NCBI GenBank assembly: GCA_002690045.1
Contig: NZDE01000013.1
Span: 62,001 to 126,000, forward strand
Source: Alphaproteobacteria bacterium
GTDB lineage: Bacteria > Pseudomonadota > Alphaproteobacteria > Micavibrionales > Micavibrionaceae
DNA: 64,000 nucleotides
Reading direction: 5' to 3'
The notes below the pieces were generated by a model. The model was given only the letters and a program-made list of their open reading frames with translations, made no database searches and had not been told where the DNA came from. The first letter of the stretch is position 1. Each line of letters opens with the position of its first letter. Position numbers and translations under genes: made by a program. Shown here piece after piece: positions 34,294 through 44,075 of the stretch.

Positions 34294-34419
34294 ATGGAAA
34301 CAGGTGATATGATTGGCTTGATTCTTGGGTTTGTTGGTGCAGGTATAGGGATTGGTGCAGTGTTGTTTGTGTTGTTCTCTCTCGTTAGAGGCTTCGCGAA
34401 AAAAAGCAAAAGAAAATGA
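34294..34419 (+). CDS. Small membrane protein, 41 aa
   Basis: A short ORF encoding one glycine-rich membrane helix (GLILGFVGAGIGIGAVLFV) with a positively charged tail (KKSKRK). The TGA overlaps the next ATG (ATGA), a strong sign of translational coupling and so of real translation. It resembles small glycine-zipper membrane proteins. Function unknown. Confidence 0.55.
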   Translation: METGDMIGLILGFVGAGIGIGAVLFVLFSLVRGFAKKSKRK

Positions 34420-34712
34420 AGAAAACTTGTTTGATATGTAGTGCGCTCATCCTCATGTTTTCGGTGAATAATCCGGTGCAGGCGGATTATTTAAAGTCAT
34501 TAAAAATAAAAAAGGCCTATGGCAAGGCCTGTAAAATTACAGAGCGCTGCGATGATATGGTCTATGTTGATTGTAATGCGGCAGCGGATGGGCCTGCTTA
34601 TTATTTGGATAAGGACCTAAAGATTATAGGCACAAGTGGTGGCCTGTGTATGATGGGCTGCAGCGCCGCACCTGAAGCATGGCAAAATTGTCAGAATAAG
34701 AAAACGAAATAG
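34416..34712 (+). CDS. Small secreted cysteine-rich protein
   Basis: 98 aa with a Sec signal peptide (MKKTCLICSALILMFSV, cleavage probably after VQA). The mature part has six cysteines, probably in disulfides, and the block GGLCMMGCSAAP. Translation is coupled to the upstream 41-aa membrane protein. No family recognised. Confidence 0.7.
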   Translation: MKKTCLICSALILMFSVNNPVQADYLKSLKIKKAYGKACKITERCDDMVYVDCNAAADGPAYYLDKDLKIIGTSGGLCMMGCSAAPEAWQNCQNKKTK

Positions 34713-36051: not shown

Positions 36052-37245
36052 ATGATTTTCTGGCGTAAGAAAAAATCAACCGAACAAGATAGCGCAGAAG
36101 AAGATGCATTGCTCCACCCAGAAGGGGAAGCTGCATTAGAACCCATAGAAGAAACACCAACTGTGCAAGACGCAGAAGAAGTTGTGCACGCGGTTGAAGA
36201 AGCCCTCGAAACGCCGATTGAGGATATTGAGGAAGTTCCTGTACCCGAAGCCGTAGAAGAAATGCCAGAGATTGCATCTGAAGAAGATGAGCATGAGGAA
36301 GAAGACACTGAAGAGCAGCAGGGTGGGTGGTTTTCACGCTTAAGCAGCGGCCTTTCCAAATCATCACAGAAAATTGGGCAGGGCATTGGTGACCTGATTA
36401 CCAAGAAGAAATTAGATCACGAAACATTAGAAGCATTAGAAGAAATTCTTATCACGGCGGATTTGGGACCTGAATTAGCCATGCGCCTTGTGTCGATGTT
36501 GGAACAAGACCGTTTTGACAAAGAAGTCAGCGATGAAGAAGTTAAAGAATATCTGGCGGAGAAAATCGCGGAGATATTAAAGCCATGCGCGGCGCAGTTT
36601 GAAATGAAAAAGCCTGAAAAAGGCCCGCGCGTTATTTTGGTGTGCGGCGTGAACGGCGTGGGTAAAACCACGACAATTGGTAAATTAGCGCATCAAATGC
36701 ATTTCAAAGCCGGAAAGACGGTTGCGCTGGGCGCGGGGGACACATTCCGCGCCGCGGCGGTTGAACAGCTACAAATTTGGGCAGAACGTACAGGCAGTGC
36801 CTTTGTATCCAAAGACCTTGGGTCAGATGCCGCCGCAGTGGCTTATGAGTCATACCAAAAGGCATTGGATGAAAACGCTGATCTGTTGATGATTGATACG
36901 GCAGGGCGTTTACACAATAAACAAAACTTGATGGCGGAACTTGAGAAAATCATCCGCGTTCTTAAAAAGCATGATGATAAACTACCACATGAAGTATTGC
37001 TCGTATTAGATTCAACCACTGGGCAAAATGCGATTACGCAGGTTGAAACATTTAAACAGTTGGTCAATGTGACGGGGTTAATTGTCACCAAACTTGACGG
37101 GTCAGCCAAAGGCGGCGTTGTGGTCGCGCTCGCCGAAAAATTCGGTCTGCCAGTCTATGCAGTCGGCGTTGGTGAGAAGGTTGAAGATTTACAGCCGTTC
37201 AAGCCAGAAGAATACGCCAAAGCGCTTGTCGGGTTAGACGCTTAA
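36052..37245 (+). CDS. ftsY: SRP receptor FtsY
   Basis: 397 aa GTPase that docks SRP-ribosome complexes at the membrane. A highly acidic N-terminal part (~10-90) is followed by the NG domain. Motifs are VCGVNGVGKTTTIGKLA, DTFRAAAVEQL, DTAGRLHNKQNLM and VTKLDGSAKGGV. The partner Ffh is at 30128-31744. A weak run of secondary structure follows the stop. Confidence 0.97.
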   Translation: MIFWRKKKSTEQDSAEEDALLHPEGEAALEPIEETPTVQDAEEVVHAVEEALETPIEDIEEVPVPEAVEEMPEIASEEDEHEEEDTEEQQGGWFSRLSSGLSKSSQKIGQGIGDLITKKKLDHETLEALEEILITADLGPELAMRLVSMLEQDRFDKEVSDEEVKEYLAEKIAEILKPCAAQFEMKKPEKGPRVILVCGVNGVGKTTTIGKLAHQMHFKAGKTVALGAGDTFRAAAVEQLQIWAERTGSAFVSKDLGSDAAAVAYESYQKALDENADLLMIDTAGRLHNKQNLMAELEKIIRVLKKHDDKLPHEVLLVLDSTTGQNAITQVETFKQLVNVTGLIVTKLDGSAKGGVVVALAEKFGLPVYAVGVGEKVEDLQPFKPEEYAKALVGLDA

Positions 37246-37316: not shown

Positions 37317-38240
37317 TTAGCGAATAAGAATATGGCTTCCACTTTGTTTAAGCGCTGGTTTACTTGCTTCAATACGCTCACCGCTATCCATAAAGGCGCG
37401 GGCGCGTTCGATCAGACCTTGGTTCATATATGTATCAAAGCTTTCAATATCTTTTGTGCGCCAGTTACAGACACGGAGGGCTGATGAGCCATCATAGCCT
37501 TCCTGCGTATGAATGGCATTTTGTTCAAAATCAATAAGCAGTCGTTTTCTCAATAAATAATCACTACCCTTGTAGTTCTTGAATAGCCCGTTTGGCATGT
37601 ATTGCGAAGCCTTTACATAGAAAATATGACTTAAAGCGGCGGTTTGATCGTCAAGGCGGACGAATTTACCTGATTCAAATTCTTGTATCGCATAATGTAC
37701 GAATGCACTGTAGTTTGATGATGTTGATTGTTTTTCGCCATTAAAATATGTCTGATAATCTAGGCCGTTTTCGAGAAGCTTTACTGTGATGTCTTTGTTG
37801 TCATCTGTTGTATAGAATAATGCAGATAGGTCGTTGTTGTCTTGCGCATTTAGGTCTGCGTCCAGATTGATAATATTTTCAAAAAGCGGCCATTCAAAAA
37901 TCGCTATCTTGGCATCAATACGTTGTCCGTCTTCGGTATAGTCATGAAGTTTTGCATTTTTGTCTTGGTTGTACTTCATTAATATCATTAATGGAGTTGC
38001 ACCATTTGCGCTCCAAAAATTTGCGCCGCGTTCAGGTTTGGTTTCATTTGTGTAGCGTCTTTCTAACTGGTCTGGGTTATTTTCCAAAAAATTTGTGATA
38101 ATGGCGGTCGCGTTTTCAGGCTCTTTAAGGATGCAATATTCAATAACATCGTAAATATTATCCATGTTAAATGTACGTGGCTTTGGCGGTGGTGGTGGCG
38201 GTGCTTGTTCTTTTTTGCCGATCAATCCGAATATTGCCAT
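37317..38240 (-). CDS. Diverged ankyrin-like protein at the end of the array
   Basis: 307 aa. The N-terminus is a short leader (MAIFGLIGKKE) and a run of prolines, followed by weak ankyrin-like repeats (GATPLMILMKYNQDKNAKL, DADLNAQDNNDLSALFYT). The C-terminal module of the upstream paralogues is not present in recognisable form, although GKFVRLDD recalls its first strand. ATG 38240 has AAGGAAG upstream. It lies 102 bases after the secreted-protein gene, so it may have its own promoter. Confidence 0.7.
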   Translation of the reverse strand: MAIFGLIGKKEQAPPPPPPKPRTFNMDNIYDVIEYCILKEPENATAIITNFLENNPDQLERRYTNETKPERGANFWSANGATPLMILMKYNQDKNAKLHDYTEDGQRIDAKIAIFEWPLFENIINLDADLNAQDNNDLSALFYTTDDNKDITVKLLENGLDYQTYFNGEKQSTSSNYSAFVHYAIQEFESGKFVRLDDQTAALSHIFYVKASQYMPNGLFKNYKGSDYLLRKRLLIDFEQNAIHTQEGYDGSSALRVCNWRTKDIESFDTYMNQGLIERARAFMDSGERIEASKPALKQSGSHILIR

Positions 38241-38342
38241 CTTTATCTTCCTTGCGCCTATGTTTAATAAAACCAATGAAATTTACATAAACACAACCTT
38301 TAAGTCAAGGAAATACTGTGCACATGCCGCCCGCGCGGCATA

Positions 38343-38915
38343 TTATTCGTAAACGTCTTCACAGGGGCGGGCGTTTTCGCCGCTACCACAATATTCGCCA
38401 AAATCTGCGGCGTTATAAGGCGGCGTATTAAGCCAGTATGTAGGGGCAGGTTGAATGGTATCAGCGCATTTTAATTCAGGGAATGGCCAGTTATAGACTT
38501 TGATCTTATATGGCCCATCAATGCCCTTGCGGCGGATGGCCTCACCTGAAAATCTGAATTTTATGCTGTGCTGTTCGTTTTCTGCGTCCGTCACGAACAT
38601 TAATGATGGGGCATTCACAGGTGATGCGTATTCGAAATAGGGCTGGCTTGTGATGTGTTTATCTTCTGCGCTTAACAGTCCCACATGAATATTATATGGG
38701 CCAATGCATTTGCTTTCTAAATCCAATCGCACGGTTATGGCCGTAAACTTGTCTTTATGCGTTTGGCCATTCCACATCGTTTTATCCGTGGAAATAGTCG
38801 TGCTTAATATGTTGAATGCGAGCATATTTTCTGCTGTATCTTGCGCCAAAACTGGCGCGGCGGATAAGGTTGTAAGCATCAAGGCCGTGCAAAATATGTT
38901 CTGTATTTTATTCAT
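38343..38915 (-). CDS. Secreted hypothetical protein within the ankyrin operon
   Basis: 190 aa. A clear signal peptide (MNKIQNIFCTALMLTTLSAA, cleavage after VLA) is followed by a beta-rich domain containing FSGEAIRRKGIDGPYKIKV. A four-cysteine C-terminus ends YCGSGENARPCEDVYE. It starts only four bases after the last array gene's stop with no clear ribosome site, so it is probably translated by reinitiation. Family uncertain; the IDGPY pattern recurs in bacterial exported proteins. Confidence 0.65.
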   Translation of the reverse strand: MNKIQNIFCTALMLTTLSAAPVLAQDTAENMLAFNILSTTISTDKTMWNGQTHKDKFTAITVRLDLESKCIGPYNIHVGLLSAEDKHITSQPYFEYASPVNAPSLMFVTDAENEQHSIKFRFSGEAIRRKGIDGPYKIKVYNWPFPELKCADTIQPAPTYWLNTPPYNAADFGEYCGSGENARPCEDVYE

Positions 38916-38919
38916 CTTA

Positions 38920-39603
38920 TTACTTTATTACAGATGGCGGTTTATATCCATGTAAATTGCCATCGTGTTCTTCTAAAAATTTAGCCGCTTGACTTAATTG
39001 GTGTGGGTTAGCTGTTTGGTTGAATAGTTGCATATAGCTGCTTTGCCCGTCATTATCCTTGGTTTTGCGTGTGATGGTTTTATCGGCAAAGTTAAAATAG
39101 GTCGTGAATGTTGTTTCGGTTTCTTCGGCGACATCGGTATAGGACACGATGTGGTCGTTTTCTCTTATAAAGACATGCACGGTTTGTCCAGCGATCTGCT
39201 CTTTGACATAGCTTGGGTTAATTAGTGTTTGTATGGTTTTATTGCTTGTGTAGTGTTCGGCACTATACCCGTATTTTGTCCTTGCGTCTCTATCAACATC
39301 TGTTTCCAAAACAATATTGACCATGTCAATATCATTAGTCATAGCGGCAGTATGTAATATGCTTCTTTTGTAGTTGTCGCGCGCATGAACATTTGCGCCG
39401 AGTTTTATCAAACCGCGGACAATATCGTGTTTTTTGTGGTATATCGCATAGTGTAAAGGCGTGATCTTCTTTCTTTTTGCATATCCTGACCCAACAGATG
39501 TTAGGGCTTCTAATTGTTTTGGGTTTTCAGCAAGATGGGTTTTAACTTGATTGAAGTCACCTTCATCAATGAGCTTAAAAATTTTTGCTTTTATAAGCGC
39601 CAT
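38920..39603 (-). CDS. Ankyrin-repeat protein, array copy 5
   Basis: 227 aa. About three ankyrin repeats follow an N-terminal helix (AKIFKLIDEGDFNQVKTHL), including ITPLHYAIYHKKHDIVRGLI and RSILHTAAMTNDIDMVNIVL. The C-terminal ~85 residues form the array's shared module: VSYTDVAEE, YFNFADKTIT, LSQAAKFLEEHDGNLHGY. No signal peptide, so cytoplasmic unless exported another way. AGGGG precedes the ATG, 11 bases after copy 4. Confidence 0.85.
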   Translation of the reverse strand: MALIKAKIFKLIDEGDFNQVKTHLAENPKQLEALTSVGSGYAKRKKITPLHYAIYHKKHDIVRGLIKLGANVHARDNYKRSILHTAAMTNDIDMVNIVLETDVDRDARTKYGYSAEHYTSNKTIQTLINPSYVKEQIAGQTVHVFIRENDHIVSYTDVAEETETTFTTYFNFADKTITRKTKDNDGQSSYMQLFNQTANPHQLSQAAKFLEEHDGNLHGYKPPSVIK

Positions 39604-39614
39604 ATTTGTTCCCC

Positions 39615-40442
39615 TTATTTAATTAATGTTGGCGTGTAGCCGCATAAATTACCATTTTTACTGTCCAAAAACTTGGTGGCGTTTTGTAGCTCAGTCTTGC
39701 TGATCGCTTCGTCAAAGCTTTTGGTTAGGGATTTGCCGGTGTTGTTGTATTGGTAAGATACCGTGCGCGCCTGAAAATTATAAAGCGCGGTTTCATCAAT
39801 ATTGGCAAGCTGCGCAAATGTTGAAACAGATACAAGAAAGTCGCCTTCCTGAATAAATTTACCTGATAACGCCTCTTTGATTTGAATTTGTATGTCTTTA
39901 TCCCTCGTACGGTTTTGTGGGAATTTACCATTTTTATTGCGTATAGTCGGGTCGGCATTATGGGCTAATAGGGTGTGTGCAACATTACTTCGATCATATG
40001 AAGCAGCTATATGCAGCGGAGTGTTTCCGTCCTCATCTTGTGCATTTGGGTCGAGACCTTGTGCAATAAGCAGTTCTATTAACTCTGTGTCCCAATACCT
40101 TGCAGCTAAGTGTAGCAGAGTCGAACCACTTTCTAATACGCAGTGACAGTCAACGCCGGCTTCGATAAGGAGTTTTACGCCTGATAGGTTTCTGCTGTTT
40201 ATTGCTGTTGCAATTGGCGGGTATCCCCATTTATTGGGGGTGTTTAACCCAGCATCATATTTAAGAAGTGTTTTTAAAGAAAGGTTGTAATAACAGGCGG
40301 CGGCATAACCTATAAGAAGGTTTTCATCGCTTTTGGTCGTCATCGTCAGGCATTCAGGATGCTTCTCTATATATGCTTCTAATTTTTCCTGATTGTCTTT
40401 TTCAATCAGCTTGAATATTTTCTTATTTCCAAAATTTAACAT
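39615..40442 (-). CDS. Ankyrin-repeat protein, array copy 4
   Basis: 275 aa. The longest clean repeat run in the array: about five ankyrin repeats (~30-190), for example STLLHLAARYWDTELIELLI and NTPLHIAASYDRSNVAHTLL. The shared C-terminal module follows: GKFIQEGDFLVSVSTFAQL, YNFQARTVSY, LQNATKFLDSKNGNLCGY. GGGAG precedes the ATG. It is 11 bases downstream of copy 3. Confidence 0.87.
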   Translation of the reverse strand: MLNFGNKKIFKLIEKDNQEKLEAYIEKHPECLTMTTKSDENLLIGYAAACYYNLSLKTLLKYDAGLNTPNKWGYPPIATAINSRNLSGVKLLIEAGVDCHCVLESGSTLLHLAARYWDTELIELLIAQGLDPNAQDEDGNTPLHIAASYDRSNVAHTLLAHNADPTIRNKNGKFPQNRTRDKDIQIQIKEALSGKFIQEGDFLVSVSTFAQLANIDETALYNFQARTVSYQYNNTGKSLTKSFDEAISKTELQNATKFLDSKNGNLCGYTPTLIK

Positions 40443-40453
40443 CTGGCATCTCC

Positions 40454-41086
40454 CTATATAATGGCTGGTATTTTATAGCCGCATAAATCGCCATTTTCTT
40501 TTTTCAAAAATTCTGCGGCCTGTTTTAATTGATATTGTTGTTTAAAGTCTTCGCGTGAATTGATTTGCCCGCTCATATCATGCGTGATGGTAATAATTTC
40601 GCGTGCCTTGAAATTGAATAGTTTTTTGATGCTTAATTGGCTGGCTTCGGCATAGTCGCTGATTGACACCATATAGGCAGATTCCTTGATGAATTTGCCA
40701 TTATTTTCTAAATCAAATATCATTCGGCATGATTCAGGCGCGTGCTCTTTGGCAGTTTTTCTGTAGGATGTTTTAATTGATGTATCTGCCCCAGCAAGGA
40801 TGAGGCGTTGCAAACAATATGCGCGGCCTTTCTTTGCTGCGCTTGATAAAGCAGTGTCGTGGTCCTTATCTTGTGCATCCAGATCTGCGCCAGATGTGAT
40901 TAGATAGTCCAGAATTTCATTCTTACCATGCCATGCTGCCCATATTAGGGGGGTGCATTTATAGTCTGTGCCAATAATGTTTAATGCTTCAGGATTATCT
41001 TTATGCCAGTTTTTGATATCATCCAGGTGGCCATTATCAATTAAATCAAAGATATCTTTTGCCGCGATCTTATTTTTCTTAAACAT
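40454..41086 (-). CDS. Ankyrin-repeat protein, array copy 3
   Basis: 210 aa. The N-terminal helix KDIFDLIDNGHLDDIKNW precedes about three ankyrin repeats (TPLIWAAWHGKNEILDYLI, TALSSAAKKGRAYCLQRLI). The shared C-terminal module is present: GKFIKESAYMVSISDYAEA, LFNFKAREIIT, LKQAAEFLKKENGDLCGY. AGGAAG precedes the ATG, 11 bases after copy 2. Confidence 0.86.
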   Translation of the reverse strand: MFKKNKIAAKDIFDLIDNGHLDDIKNWHKDNPEALNIIGTDYKCTPLIWAAWHGKNEILDYLITSGADLDAQDKDHDTALSSAAKKGRAYCLQRLILAGADTSIKTSYRKTAKEHAPESCRMIFDLENNGKFIKESAYMVSISDYAEASQLSIKKLFNFKAREIITITHDMSGQINSREDFKQQYQLKQAAEFLKKENGDLCGYKIPAII

Positions 41087-41097
41087 AAATGTGCTTC

Positions 41098-41997
41098 CTA
41101 TATAATCACGCGCTGTTGCCAGCTATATGTGTTGCCGCCCTGTGTTTCTAAATATTCTGCTGCGGCCTTTAACTGTTTTAGGCTCGCGGCATTTTTGAAG
41201 GCATTGACGCATTGTGCTTTGCCAGTGGGTTCAGTTGTGATGGTTGTGATCGTTTCATCGGAAAAATCGTAAATGATTTTCTGAATTGTTGCTGATGCTT
41301 CAAAGACCTTAGTGATGGATACGGCACTTTCGTTTTCTTGGACAAAGTTACCGGATTTTATATCTTCTGATAGCGTAGCTAAAGACTCATCTTGTTGCGT
41401 GTTCTGCGGCAAAGCGTCTATTTCTGAATCTACAATCCTTATGTATGTTGATTCTGATGTTTGAGAAGCTGTCTTTCCTGCATTATTTTTGATTGTTCTA
41501 TCTATGCCTGCAAGGAGTAGAGCTTTGTATACTGGGAGTCTAGAAAAGGATGCGGCTTTATGAAGTGCTGTATACCCATCTTTATTTTGTAAGTTAAGCT
41601 TAGCGCCATTCTTGATCAAACGCTTTAGTGTATTTAACTGGTTATTGTAGGCTGCGTAATGCAGTGCTGTATTGTTTGCGTGGCCACGGGCATTAATATC
41701 AACATCATCACGTGAGAGGAGCAGGGTTAGAAGCTCTTCATTACCTGTGGCCGCCGCGTGGTGAAGCGCGAGGTTATTATATGCATCTTCCTCATTGGGG
41801 TTTGCGCCGAGCTCTAAGAGTTTTTTGGCAAATTCGGTTTTCTTGTGCATTATCGTGTAAGAAAGTGGTGGGCGTTTGTCCGACCAAAAGCCAGAGCGTT
41901 CATTCAAACAATCAGGGTTGGCTTTTACGAACTCTTCTAATTCGTTGATTGTGCCGTTTTTAATGATTTTAAAAATGTCTCGTTCACTTTTAAACAT
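41098..41997 (-). CDS. Ankyrin-repeat protein, array copy 2
   Basis: 299 aa. About four ankyrin repeats (NLALHHAAATGNEELLTLLL, TALHYAAYNNQLNTLKRLI, TALHKAASFSRLPVYKALL) and a variable linker precede the shared C-terminal module. The module reads GNFVQENESAVSITKVFEA, IYDFSDETITTIT and LKAAAEYLETQGGNTYSW. Start ATG 41997 (MFKSERDIFKIIKNG) has AGAGGAA upstream; the longer frame to 42045 overlaps copy 1 and is rejected. It is 10 bases after copy 1. Confidence 0.86.
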   Translation of the reverse strand: MFKSERDIFKIIKNGTINELEEFVKANPDCLNERSGFWSDKRPPLSYTIMHKKTEFAKKLLELGANPNEEDAYNNLALHHAAATGNEELLTLLLSRDDVDINARGHANNTALHYAAYNNQLNTLKRLIKNGAKLNLQNKDGYTALHKAASFSRLPVYKALLLAGIDRTIKNNAGKTASQTSESTYIRIVDSEIDALPQNTQQDESLATLSEDIKSGNFVQENESAVSITKVFEASATIQKIIYDFSDETITTITTEPTGKAQCVNAFKNAASLKQLKAAAEYLETQGGNTYSWQQRVII

Positions 41998-42007
41998 GTT
42001 TTTTCCT

Positions 42008-42676
42008 CTATTGAATAAGCATTGGCTTCCAGCTACATGTGTCACCGTTTTTTTCTTGTAGATATTCCGCAGCAGCTTTTAGTTCTTTGGGGCTCGCGGC
42101 CTTATTAAACGGCACTACATGCGGCGCGGATTCTTTTGTACCTTGTAAATAGGTGACGGTTTGTGCCTTGAAGTTATAGACCGTGGTTAGGCTAAGCTTT
42201 GTTACTTCGGTGTGTTCGGTGATGGAGACAAGGTAATTTCCATCTTTACAGAATTTGCTATTATCGATCGATGTGTTGGTTTCGGAAACAAGTTCCTCAT
42301 TGGCTTTACGATGATTGATGAATAGCTGCTTAATGGAGTCGTTTTTTGCATTTTGCTCTGCGGTTAGCCCCCTGTTGTCTAAAATAGTGGTGTCTGCGCC
42401 AGCATTTAATAGTAACTTTACGCAGTCGTGATGACCGAAATGAGAAGAGAGAATAAGCGCATTACACATGTGTTTGTTCATGCAATCCAATTCGGCGTTG
42501 AATTCTAATAAAACTTGCAGCATATCGGCGCGGCCTTTAAATGCGGCGCGTGTGAGTGGTGTAGTATTGTCGCCGCCGCCTCTTTCATTCACTTTATCAG
42601 GGTTTTTCTGCAGAAAAGCGCGCAGCTGTTCTGGTGTGCCTTTATCGATGATTTTATATGCTGTCTTTTTAAACAT
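42008..42676 (-). CDS. Ankyrin-repeat protein, array copy 1 (operon head)
   Basis: 222 aa. Opening MFKKTAYKIIDKGTPEQLRA, then about three ankyrin repeats (TTPLTRAAFKGRADMLQVLL, NALILSSHFGHHDCVKLLL). The shared C-terminal module follows: GNYLVSITEHTEV, VYNFKAQTVTYL, LKAAAEYLQEKNGDTCSW. GGGAG lies seven bases ahead of the ATG. Directly upstream is a promoter with a perfect TTGACA box. No signal peptide. Function of the array unknown. Confidence 0.86.
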   Translation of the reverse strand: MFKKTAYKIIDKGTPEQLRAFLQKNPDKVNERGGGDNTTPLTRAAFKGRADMLQVLLEFNAELDCMNKHMCNALILSSHFGHHDCVKLLLNAGADTTILDNRGLTAEQNAKNDSIKQLFINHRKANEELVSETNTSIDNSKFCKDGNYLVSITEHTEVTKLSLTTVYNFKAQTVTYLQGTKESAPHVVPFNKAASPKELKAAAEYLQEKNGDTCSWKPMLIQ

Positions 42677-42704: not shown

Positions 42705-42732
42705 ATATTAAACATAATGGTAATTATGTCAA
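42705..42732 (-). promoter_or_regulatory. Promoter of the ankyrin array
   Basis: On the minus strand TTGACA (42732-42727) is followed after 16 bases by TAATAT (42710-42705). The predicted start is about 20 bases ahead of the first ATG. As the genes are 4-11 bases apart down to 38343, it can drive six genes. Confidence 0.5.
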
Positions 42733-42851: not shown

Positions 42852-44075
42852 ATGAGCAAGATTAAAGTTGATAATCCGATCGTTGAAATTGATGGCGATG
42901 AAATGACGCGTATTATTTGGGACTTCATTAAAACGAAGTTGATTTTGCCTTATGTTGATGTGGATCTGAAATATTATGATTTGTCGATCCAATCTCGTGA
43001 TGCGACCGATGACCAGATCACGATTGATGCAGCAAACGCGATTAAAGAACACGGCGTTGGCGTTAAATGTGCAACGATTACCCCTGACGAAGGCCGCGTG
43101 GAAGAATTTGGCCTAAAGAAAATGTGGCGTTCCCCAAACGGGACAATCCGTAATATTATTGGCGGCACAGTTTTTCGTGAGCCGATTATTTGTGACAATG
43201 TACCGCGCTATGTGCCGGGCTGGACACAGCCAATTGTTATTGGTCGTCATGCTTTTGGTGACCAATACCGCGCGACAGATGTAAAAATCCCAGGTGCTGG
43301 GCGTTTGACTATGACTTACACACCAGAAGATGGTAGCGCGCCACAGGAAATGGAAATCTTTAACTTTGATGGCCCTGGCGTGGCAATGGGCATGTATAAC
43401 CTTGATGAAAGTATTAAAGGTTTTGCGCGCTCATGCTTTAACTATGGTTTGCAGCGTGGTTATCCCGTTTATATGTCGACGAAGAACACAATTTTGAAAG
43501 CCTATGATGGCCAGTTCAAAGATTTGTTCCAAGAAGTGTTTGATAATGAGTTCAAAGACAAGTTTGATGCGGCAGGTTTAACCTATGAACACCGCTTGAT
43601 TGATGACATGGTTGCCTGCGCCATTAAATGGAATGGCGGCTTTGTATGGGCATGTAAAAACTATGACGGCGATGTGCAGTCTGATATCGTAGCGCAGGGC
43701 TTTGGTTCTCTAGGTTTAATGACATCTGTTTTGATGACACCAGATGGCAAAACGGTAGAAGCCGAAGCTGCGCATGGAACAGTGACGCGTCACTTCCGCT
43801 TGCATGAACAAGGCAAAGAAACATCAACTAACCCGATAGCGTCTATATTCGCATGGACACGCGGCATGAAATATCGTGGTAAGTTTGATGACAATCAGCC
43901 ATTGATCGACTTTGCGGAGCGTCTAGAGCAGGTCTGTATCGATACAGTTGAAGCGGGCTTCATGACCAAAGACCTTGCGATCTTAGTTGGTAAAGATCAG
44001 CCATATCTAAATACACAAGCTTTTCTTGATAAGATTGTTGAGGGTCTAGAAGGCGCGATGCAGAAAGCGGTGTAA
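42852..44075 (+). CDS. icd: NADP-dependent isocitrate dehydrogenase
   Basis: 407 aa TCA-cycle enzyme producing 2-oxoglutarate and NADPH. It belongs to the homodimeric type II family shared by alphaproteobacteria and eukaryotes. The substrate block is [20 protein letters not shown], the metal-binding aspartates lie in [12 protein letters not shown] and [20 protein letters not shown], and [13 protein letters not shown] contacts the coenzyme. Length is as usual for the group. AAGGAA precedes the ATG. Confidence 0.97.

What the first reader, a model, noticed from the sequence alone, without database searches (positions are those of the whole stretch)
38343..42676. Operon of five tandem ankyrin-repeat paralogues with one secreted protein
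Five minus-strand genes of 210-299 aa follow each other with gaps of 10-11 bases, each with an N-terminal 'IFKLI' helix, 3-5 ankyrin repeats and the same C-terminal module. A sixth gene, encoding an exported protein, starts four bases after the last copy. One TTGACA promoter heads the run. Repeat number and linker length vary while the ends are conserved, as expected for a recognition set that diversifies by duplication. Roles as immunity proteins, effectors or predation/defence factors are inference.
Basis: partly seen in the sequence, partly recalled or inferred. Interest (0 to 1): 0.78.

Follow-up and report, generated by a model that had tools for sequence, protein, structure and literature searches.

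The report
Array of cytosolic ankyrin-repeat binding proteins
A bacterium from the group that contains the predator Micavibrio carries a row of related ankyrin-repeat proteins that all end in a small, so far undescribed domain; related species carry similar rows of different length, so this looks like a repertoire of binding proteins, perhaps for protection, whose targets are unknown.

Summary
Five minus-strand genes (210-299 aa, gaps of 10-11 bases) each encode ankyrin repeats plus one C-terminal module; a secreted-protein gene S follows 4 bases later. It matches nothing in Pfam, NCBIfam, PADLOC, PHROGs or PDB sequences, and was found only in this order (Micavibrionales by inference), not in samples of 385 class and 299 phylum genomes. 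It is almost always fused to ankyrin repeats, typically in tandem arrays of 2-6 genes in fixed housekeeping slots with varying copy number. In the window's genus the slot icd-[array]-S-B-ftsY holds 5 copies, 5 (one truncated) or none; in the last case a 29-codon stub remains while S and B are kept. The TTGACA/TAATAT promoter is conserved where the array is present. Best explanation: a diversified set of cytosolic binders, likely a polyimmunity-like array; targets unknown. The duplications are old (31-34% identity), no T6SS was found, no toxin is linked, and S is not tied to the array.

The parts
42705..42732 (-). Promoter of the array, TTGACA-16-TAATAT, divergent from icd
   Evidence: both hexamers identical in the same-genus genome G001, absent in G002 which lost the array
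42008..42676 (-). A1: ANK + C-terminal module, 222 aa; orthologue in G001 (67% identity overall)
41098..41997 (-). A2: ANK + C-terminal module, 299 aa
40454..41086 (-). A3: ANK + C-terminal module, 210 aa; AlphaFold model pLDDT 91; likely orthologue G1_5
39615..40442 (-). A4: ANK + C-terminal module, 275 aa
38920..39603 (-). A5: ANK + C-terminal module, 227 aa; stop 4 bases before S
42011..42262 (-). C-terminal module of A1
41101..41355 (-). C-terminal module of A2
40457..40702 (-). C-terminal module of A3 (folded alone: pLDDT 91.3, pTM 0.79, five strands then a helix)
39618..39866 (-). C-terminal module of A4
38923..39186 (-). C-terminal module of A5
38343..38915 (-). S: secreted protein, 190 aa, no family; found only in this genus
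38280..38341 (-). Gap between S and B: GC hairpin 38324-38341 and promoter-like TTGACT-17-TAAATT 38308-38280, so B may be a separate unit
   Evidence: consensus matches only
37317..38240 (-). B: sixth, distant paralogue, 306 aa, eroded ANK + expanded C-terminal module; kept in all three species of the genus (62-65% identity)
42852..44075 (+). icd, isocitrate dehydrogenase: conserved flank of the slot (93-95% identity in the genus)
36052..37245 (+). ftsY-type SRP receptor GTPase: conserved flank of the slot, convergent with B

Best explanation
The locus encodes a set of cytosolic binding proteins made to one plan: a variable ankyrin-repeat arm that holds a protein target, and a constant small beta-sheet-plus-helix module at the C-terminus that caps the repeats and probably docks to a shared partner or to itself. 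They are probably transcribed together from one promoter in the slot between icd and ftsY. Copies arose by old tandem duplication, diverged until they are about as unlike each other as copies of different species, and are gained, truncated or deleted in place. The most likely use is protective: each copy binds and blocks a different harmful protein, as in homogeneous polyimmunity loci, where tandem, distantly related immunity genes stand without any toxin gene. SHOWN here: architecture, the new module and its predicted fold, tight operon-like layout, conserved promoter sequence, copy-number change in a fixed slot, loss as a block, restriction to this order as far as sampled, absence of linked toxin families and of a T6SS sheath gene. 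INFERRED: co-transcription, that the proteins stay in the cytosol (no signal peptide), that ankyrin repeats bind proteins (general knowledge), that targets differ between copies, and that the targets are toxins. S (secreted) and B (distant paralogue) persist without the array and are probably not dependent on it.
For: Tandem same-strand genes with 10-11 base gaps. Same layout in relatives: arrays of 2-6 ANK+module genes, often overlapping by 4 bases, in three recurrent housekeeping slots in another family of the order: ftsH slot 2, 3 or 4 copies; ferredoxin oxidoreductase slot 2, 3 or about 6; phenylalanine hydroxylase slot 2 or 3. Window genus: 5 copies, 5 copies with one truncated by TAG, and 0 copies with a 29-codon C-terminal stub ahead of S. 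Promoter conserved with the array. Module accompanied by ankyrin repeats in 29-30 of 31 proteins, with no conserved catalytic-type residues (only F31 and A62 invariant, F50 and G71 nearly so). Fast divergence against flanking icd: A1 pair 67%, A3 pair 42%, icd 93%. Ankyrin proteins are a listed immunity type, found in heterogeneous polyimmunity loci and fused to other immunity domains, and polyimmunity loci have no toxin genes, small gaps, one orientation and variable number (PMC3482391).
Against: No toxin target is known. Other genomes of the order carry several such arrays (up to 26 module matches in one genome), whereas polyimmunity loci are usually single. The arrays elsewhere sit at stable chromosomal positions rather than in variable islands. 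The two-partner-secretion exoproteins examined in this genome have no recognisable toxin domain and RHS repeats are absent here, so no own toxin is known for them to neutralise. The orthologous A1 pair shows ordinary purifying selection. One species of the genus does without the array.
Confidence: 0.4

Rival explanations
1. Endogenous adaptor set: the ANK+module proteins are intracellular scaffolds or inhibitors for the cell's own proteins (for instance regulators of envelope or stress enzymes), expanded by duplication; no conflict with other organisms is involved.
For: Arrays sit stably among housekeeping genes across genera; no toxin, secretion or mobile genes seen nearby; single-copy members exist, e.g. 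L071 beside a glutaredoxin-like gene; purifying selection in A1; B is kept in all three species.
Against: Rapid divergence relative to flanks, variable copy number, truncation and complete block loss in a close relative are unusual for core regulators.
Confidence: 0.3
2. Translocated effectors: the ankyrin proteins are delivered into prey or a eukaryotic host, with the constant C-terminal module as the export signal.
For: Ankyrin repeats are common in injected effectors; the constant part is at the C-terminus, where several secretion systems read their signal; other families of the order carry very many ankyrin genes; the own genome has VirB5- and VirB6-like genes on contig C16.
Against: No T6SS sheath (VipB) and no VirB4 (PF03135) match in the own genome, two same-genus genomes and six relatives, with positive controls ringing; the module is a well-folded domain (pLDDT 91), not a floppy signal.
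Confidence: 0.15
3. Anti-phage sensors: each copy recognises a phage protein through its repeats.
For: Diversified recognition arm, variable copy number, block loss.
Against: No nuclease, membrane or NAD-consuming domain recognised in the locus; PADLOC matches are through ankyrin repeats; no defence genes seen adjacent.
Confidence: 0.1
4. S is an exported toxin and the array, or B, is its immunity.
For: S is 4 bases after A5 and follows the last copy equally closely in G001; S and B are kept together in all three species.
Against: S has no toxin match; the array is lost while S stays, so the array is not its required immunity; S is exported while B and the array lack signal peptides.
Confidence: 0.05

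Closest known systems
Homogeneous polyimmunity loci (Zhang et al. 2012, PMC3482391), including Imm-Ank
   Same: Tandem, distantly related paralogues in one orientation with small gaps, no toxin gene among them, number varying between relatives; ankyrin repeats are one listed immunity fold, also fused to other immunity domains.
   Different: The constant module here matches no family in Pfam, NCBIfam or PADLOC and seems order-restricted; no toxin partner is known; relatives carry several loci per genome in stable housekeeping slots.
Tandem T7SS immunity genes esaG/tipC (PMC9484751)
   Same: Strings of non-identical paralogues; loss and gain of copies in the string.
   Different: Those keep blocks of high sequence similarity between copies that drive recombination; here within-array protein identity is about 31-34% and the only long DNA repeat is an 81-base stretch at 72%.
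Bd3460, ankyrin self-protection protein of Bdellovibrio (PMC4686830)
   Same: Small ankyrin-repeat protein that protects a predator; the window organism belongs to a predator-containing order.
   Different: Bd3460 is exported to the periplasm by a signal peptide, consists of six repeats and sits beside its DD-endopeptidase target; the proteins here have no signal peptide, carry an extra module, form an array and have no peptidoglycan enzyme in the operon.
Ankyrin effectors of Legionella-type T4SS (NCBIfam AnkY, AnkH and others)
   Same: Sequence similarity through ankyrin repeats.
   Different: All scores are far below the curated cut-offs; no VirB4 found.

Membership tests
Homogeneous polyimmunity locus | Several tandem, often distantly related paralogues of one protein type | tested here: met
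   Five copies, 31-34% mean identity
Homogeneous polyimmunity locus | Never interrupted by toxin genes | tested here: met
   No toxin family among A1-A5, S or B
Homogeneous polyimmunity locus | Small gaps, same orientation | tested here: met
   Gaps 10-11 bases, all minus strand
Homogeneous polyimmunity locus | Number and type of genes differ between close relatives | tested here: met
   5, 5 (one truncated) and 0 copies in three species of the genus; 2-6 in other genera
Homogeneous polyimmunity locus | Usually one such locus per organism (a tendency, not strict) | tested here: inconclusive
   One in the own genome; several per genome in another family of the order
Homogeneous polyimmunity locus | The proteins neutralise toxins | not testable with these tools
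   Needs experiment; no cognate toxin identified
Homogeneous polyimmunity locus | Belongs to a recognised immunity family | tested here: inconclusive
   Ankyrin repeats are a listed immunity type but generic; the C-terminal module matches no family
Bd3460-type periplasmic self-protection | Signal peptide for export | tested here: not met
   A1-A5 and B start with charged, non-hydrophobic segments (read from the sequences)
Bd3460-type periplasmic self-protection | Operon with the peptidoglycan enzyme it inhibits | tested here: not met
   Operon partners are only paralogues and S
Injected ankyrin effectors (T4SS/T6SS) | A matching secretion machine in the genome | tested here: inconclusive
   VipB and VirB4 (PF03135) models not found, but VirB5/VirB6-like genes are present on contig C16
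Known anti-phage system | Match to a defence family beyond the ankyrin repeats | tested here: not met
   PADLOC matches follow the ankyrin part of the proteins

The most novel reading that the evidence does not exclude
An order-specific recognition repertoire: a previously undescribed C-terminal domain turns ankyrin repeats into interchangeable cytosolic neutralisers, kept as arrays in fixed slots in Micavibrionales and used against toxins (or phage proteins) met by bacteria that live by attacking or inhabiting other cells.
Probability: 0.25. Interest if true: 0.75.

Novelty: new variant of a known kind. Interest (0 to 1): 0.5.

Why it matters
If the proteins are neutralisers, this order uses a generic binding scaffold plus a new constant domain as a diversifiable protection kit, which would show how lineages with predators in them survive the weapons of other cells. 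Even without the function settled, the module is a new, confidently predicted domain family with dozens of members, and the slot with 5, 5 and 0 copies in one genus gives a natural experiment for testing what such arrays do.

Tried and rejected
Tried without result: family searches of the C-terminal module and of S (Pfam, NCBIfam, PADLOC, PHROGs, PDB sequences); viral contigs (one peptide pattern of the other-family type, so weak evidence); fold search with the full model lists only ankyrin proteins at the top; fold search with the module alone gave no Foldseek match below E 0.6 and VIA-align Z of at most 6.9 over 55 residues, with polo-box domains near Z 5.5, a level that may mean only a common sheet-plus-helix arrangement. 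Considered and rejected: very recent duplication (identity too low); gene conversion as a dominant force (tails look alike in places, but trees and identities give no clear signal); CDI-type toxins in the own genome as the target (three exoproteins examined have no recognised toxin domain). Repeat-versus-module rates: dS is saturated, so omega values are rough.
Full report
WHAT IS THERE. The window holds five minus-strand genes, A1 (42008-42676), A2 (41098-41997), A3 (40454-41086), A4 (39615-40442) and A5 (38920-39603), of 222, 299, 210, 275 and 227 aa, separated by 10, 11, 11 and 11 bases, each with a Shine-Dalgarno-like sequence. S (38343-38915) follows 4 bases after A5 and has a signal peptide. 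It missed B (37317-38240), a sixth and distant paralogue beyond S: Pfam sees only a weak ankyrin match (E 0.002), but B aligns with the others along its length and carries an expanded version of the same C-terminal module. A promoter TTGACA-16-TAATAT lies at 42732-42705.

THE C-TERMINAL MODULE. The last ~80-85 residues are shared by all five. AlphaFold with 31 aligned sequences gives a confident model of A3 (pLDDT 91.3): ankyrin helices, then five antiparallel strands and a helix. The module alone folds equally well (pLDDT 91.3, pTM 0.79). Neither it nor 30 diverse relatives reach any convincing Pfam family, nor NCBIfam, PADLOC or PHROGs beyond the ankyrin part, nor a solved structure by sequence. 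Fold searches found only weak matches of a common arrangement. Across 31 diverse modules only F31 and A62 are invariant, and F50 and G71 nearly so, which argues for a binding or structural role and against an enzyme.

WHERE IT OCCURS. The own genome has just these copies. A profile of the window modules finds relatives in 12 of 95 related genomes; a profile of the other-family type finds 23 of 142 genomes of the order, with up to 26 matches in one genome. A combined profile finds none besides the own genome among 385 genomes sampled across the class and 299 of the phylum, and one peptide pattern gave no confirmed match in viral contigs. Named records among the matches include 'Micavibrio sp. 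UBA2020', whose array DNA is 96% identical to that of one genome of the order. From this I infer the order that GTDB calls Micavibrionales (the order name is from my own knowledge; the NCBI taxonomy files the genus Micavibrio elsewhere). In 31 aligned full-length relatives, 29-30 have Pfam ankyrin repeats: the combination is all but fixed.

ARRAYS ELSEWHERE. In another family of the order, ANK+module genes form same-strand runs, often overlapping by 4 bases. They recur in the same housekeeping slots with different copy numbers: beside ftsH 4, 3 and 2 copies (L116, L117, L124); beside a ferredoxin oxidoreductase 3, 3 and 2 copies (L119, L120, L121) and about 6 (L115); beside phenylalanine hydroxylase 2, 2, 3, 3 and 3 copies (L063-L066, L068). 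Neighbours are ordinary metabolic or housekeeping genes; by eye I saw no toxin, recombinase or phage gene that recurs, though not every neighbour was searched.

THE SAME SLOT IN THE GENUS. G001 has icd-[five copies]-S-B-ftsY. Its first copy is the orthologue of A1 (support 99/99) and its fifth probably of A3 (91/89). Copies 2 and 3 pair with each other (95/84), copy 2 has no recognisable ankyrin repeats, and copy 4 ends at a TAG 13 codons early. G002 has icd-S-B-ftsY. In place of the array there is an open tail of 29 codons, '...QLKQAAEHLKAHDGNLCGFKLQTSI*', directly ahead of S, which is the end of a lost copy. At the head of the array the TTGACA and TAATAT boxes are identical in the window and G001 and missing in G002. 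So a deletion took promoter and array as a block, and S and B survived it. This is why I do not tie S to the array.

RATES. The flanking icd is 93-95% identical between the species. A1 and its orthologue are 67% identical overall (ankyrin 69%, module 76%, linker none), the A3 pair 42% (37% and 51%), S 55% and 33%, B 62% and 65%. Omega is about 0.1 where it can be computed, with dS near or at saturation. Within the window the five copies are on average 31% identical in the ankyrin part and 34% in the module; between species 30% and 38%. Duplication is therefore old, and the constant end is only slightly more conserved than the repeats.

WHAT IT MOST LIKELY IS. The anatomy fits a set of cytosolic binders with a variable arm and a constant foot. 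Against delivery into other cells: no T6SS sheath gene and no VirB4 match were found in nine genomes, with controls ringing, although VirB5- and VirB6-like genes on contig C16 mean that a T4SS is not fully excluded. Against a Bd3460-type role: no signal peptide and no peptidoglycan enzyme in the operon (PMC4686830). The features listed for polyimmunity loci (PMC3482391) are met where testable: tandem distant paralogues, one orientation, small gaps, no toxin among them, number variable between relatives. What cannot be tested here is the decisive one, that the proteins neutralise something. The own genome has two-partner-secretion exoproteins, but no toxin domain was recognised in the three examined, and no RHS repeats. 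I therefore hold 'polyimmunity-like array of ankyrin binders' at 0.4, with 'endogenous adaptors' as the main rival at 0.3.

NOVELTY. Arrays of tandem immunity-like paralogues are known; this array is of that kind in layout. The constant module, its apparent order-wide restriction and the slot-by-slot copy-number change appear undescribed: the library searches for Micavibrionales or Micavibrio together with ankyrin returned no paper whose title or abstract deals with such arrays.

Noticed in passing
L129:16486-17982 (own genome, contig C16): VirB5-like (PF07996) and VirB6-like (PF04610) genes stand next to a TPS-domain exoprotein, while no VirB4 (PF03135) match was found in the genome; perhaps a remnant or incomplete T4SS.
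   Followed up: partly
L125:3678-13142, L126:2705-7729, L127:2276-5779 (own genome): Three large exoproteins of the two-partner-secretion type; one has many beta-helix repeats, one laminin-G-like and MBG domains; no toxin domain recognised at the C-termini.
   Followed up: partly
window 38280-38341: GC-rich hairpin between S and B (listed as terminator-like on the plus strand) and a TTGACT-17-TAAATT site before B.
   Followed up: no
L060:8211-8864: Fourth array copy of G001 ends at an in-frame TAG 13 codons before the usual C-terminus.
   Followed up: yes
L070:5597-6301: A protein with the C-terminal module but no Pfam ankyrin match (cut by the locus end), so the module may exist with a diverged N-terminus.
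   Followed up: no
window 34416-34712: Small secreted Cys-containing protein (98 aa, signal peptide) upstream of the mtaB-like gene, not searched against families.
   Followed up: no
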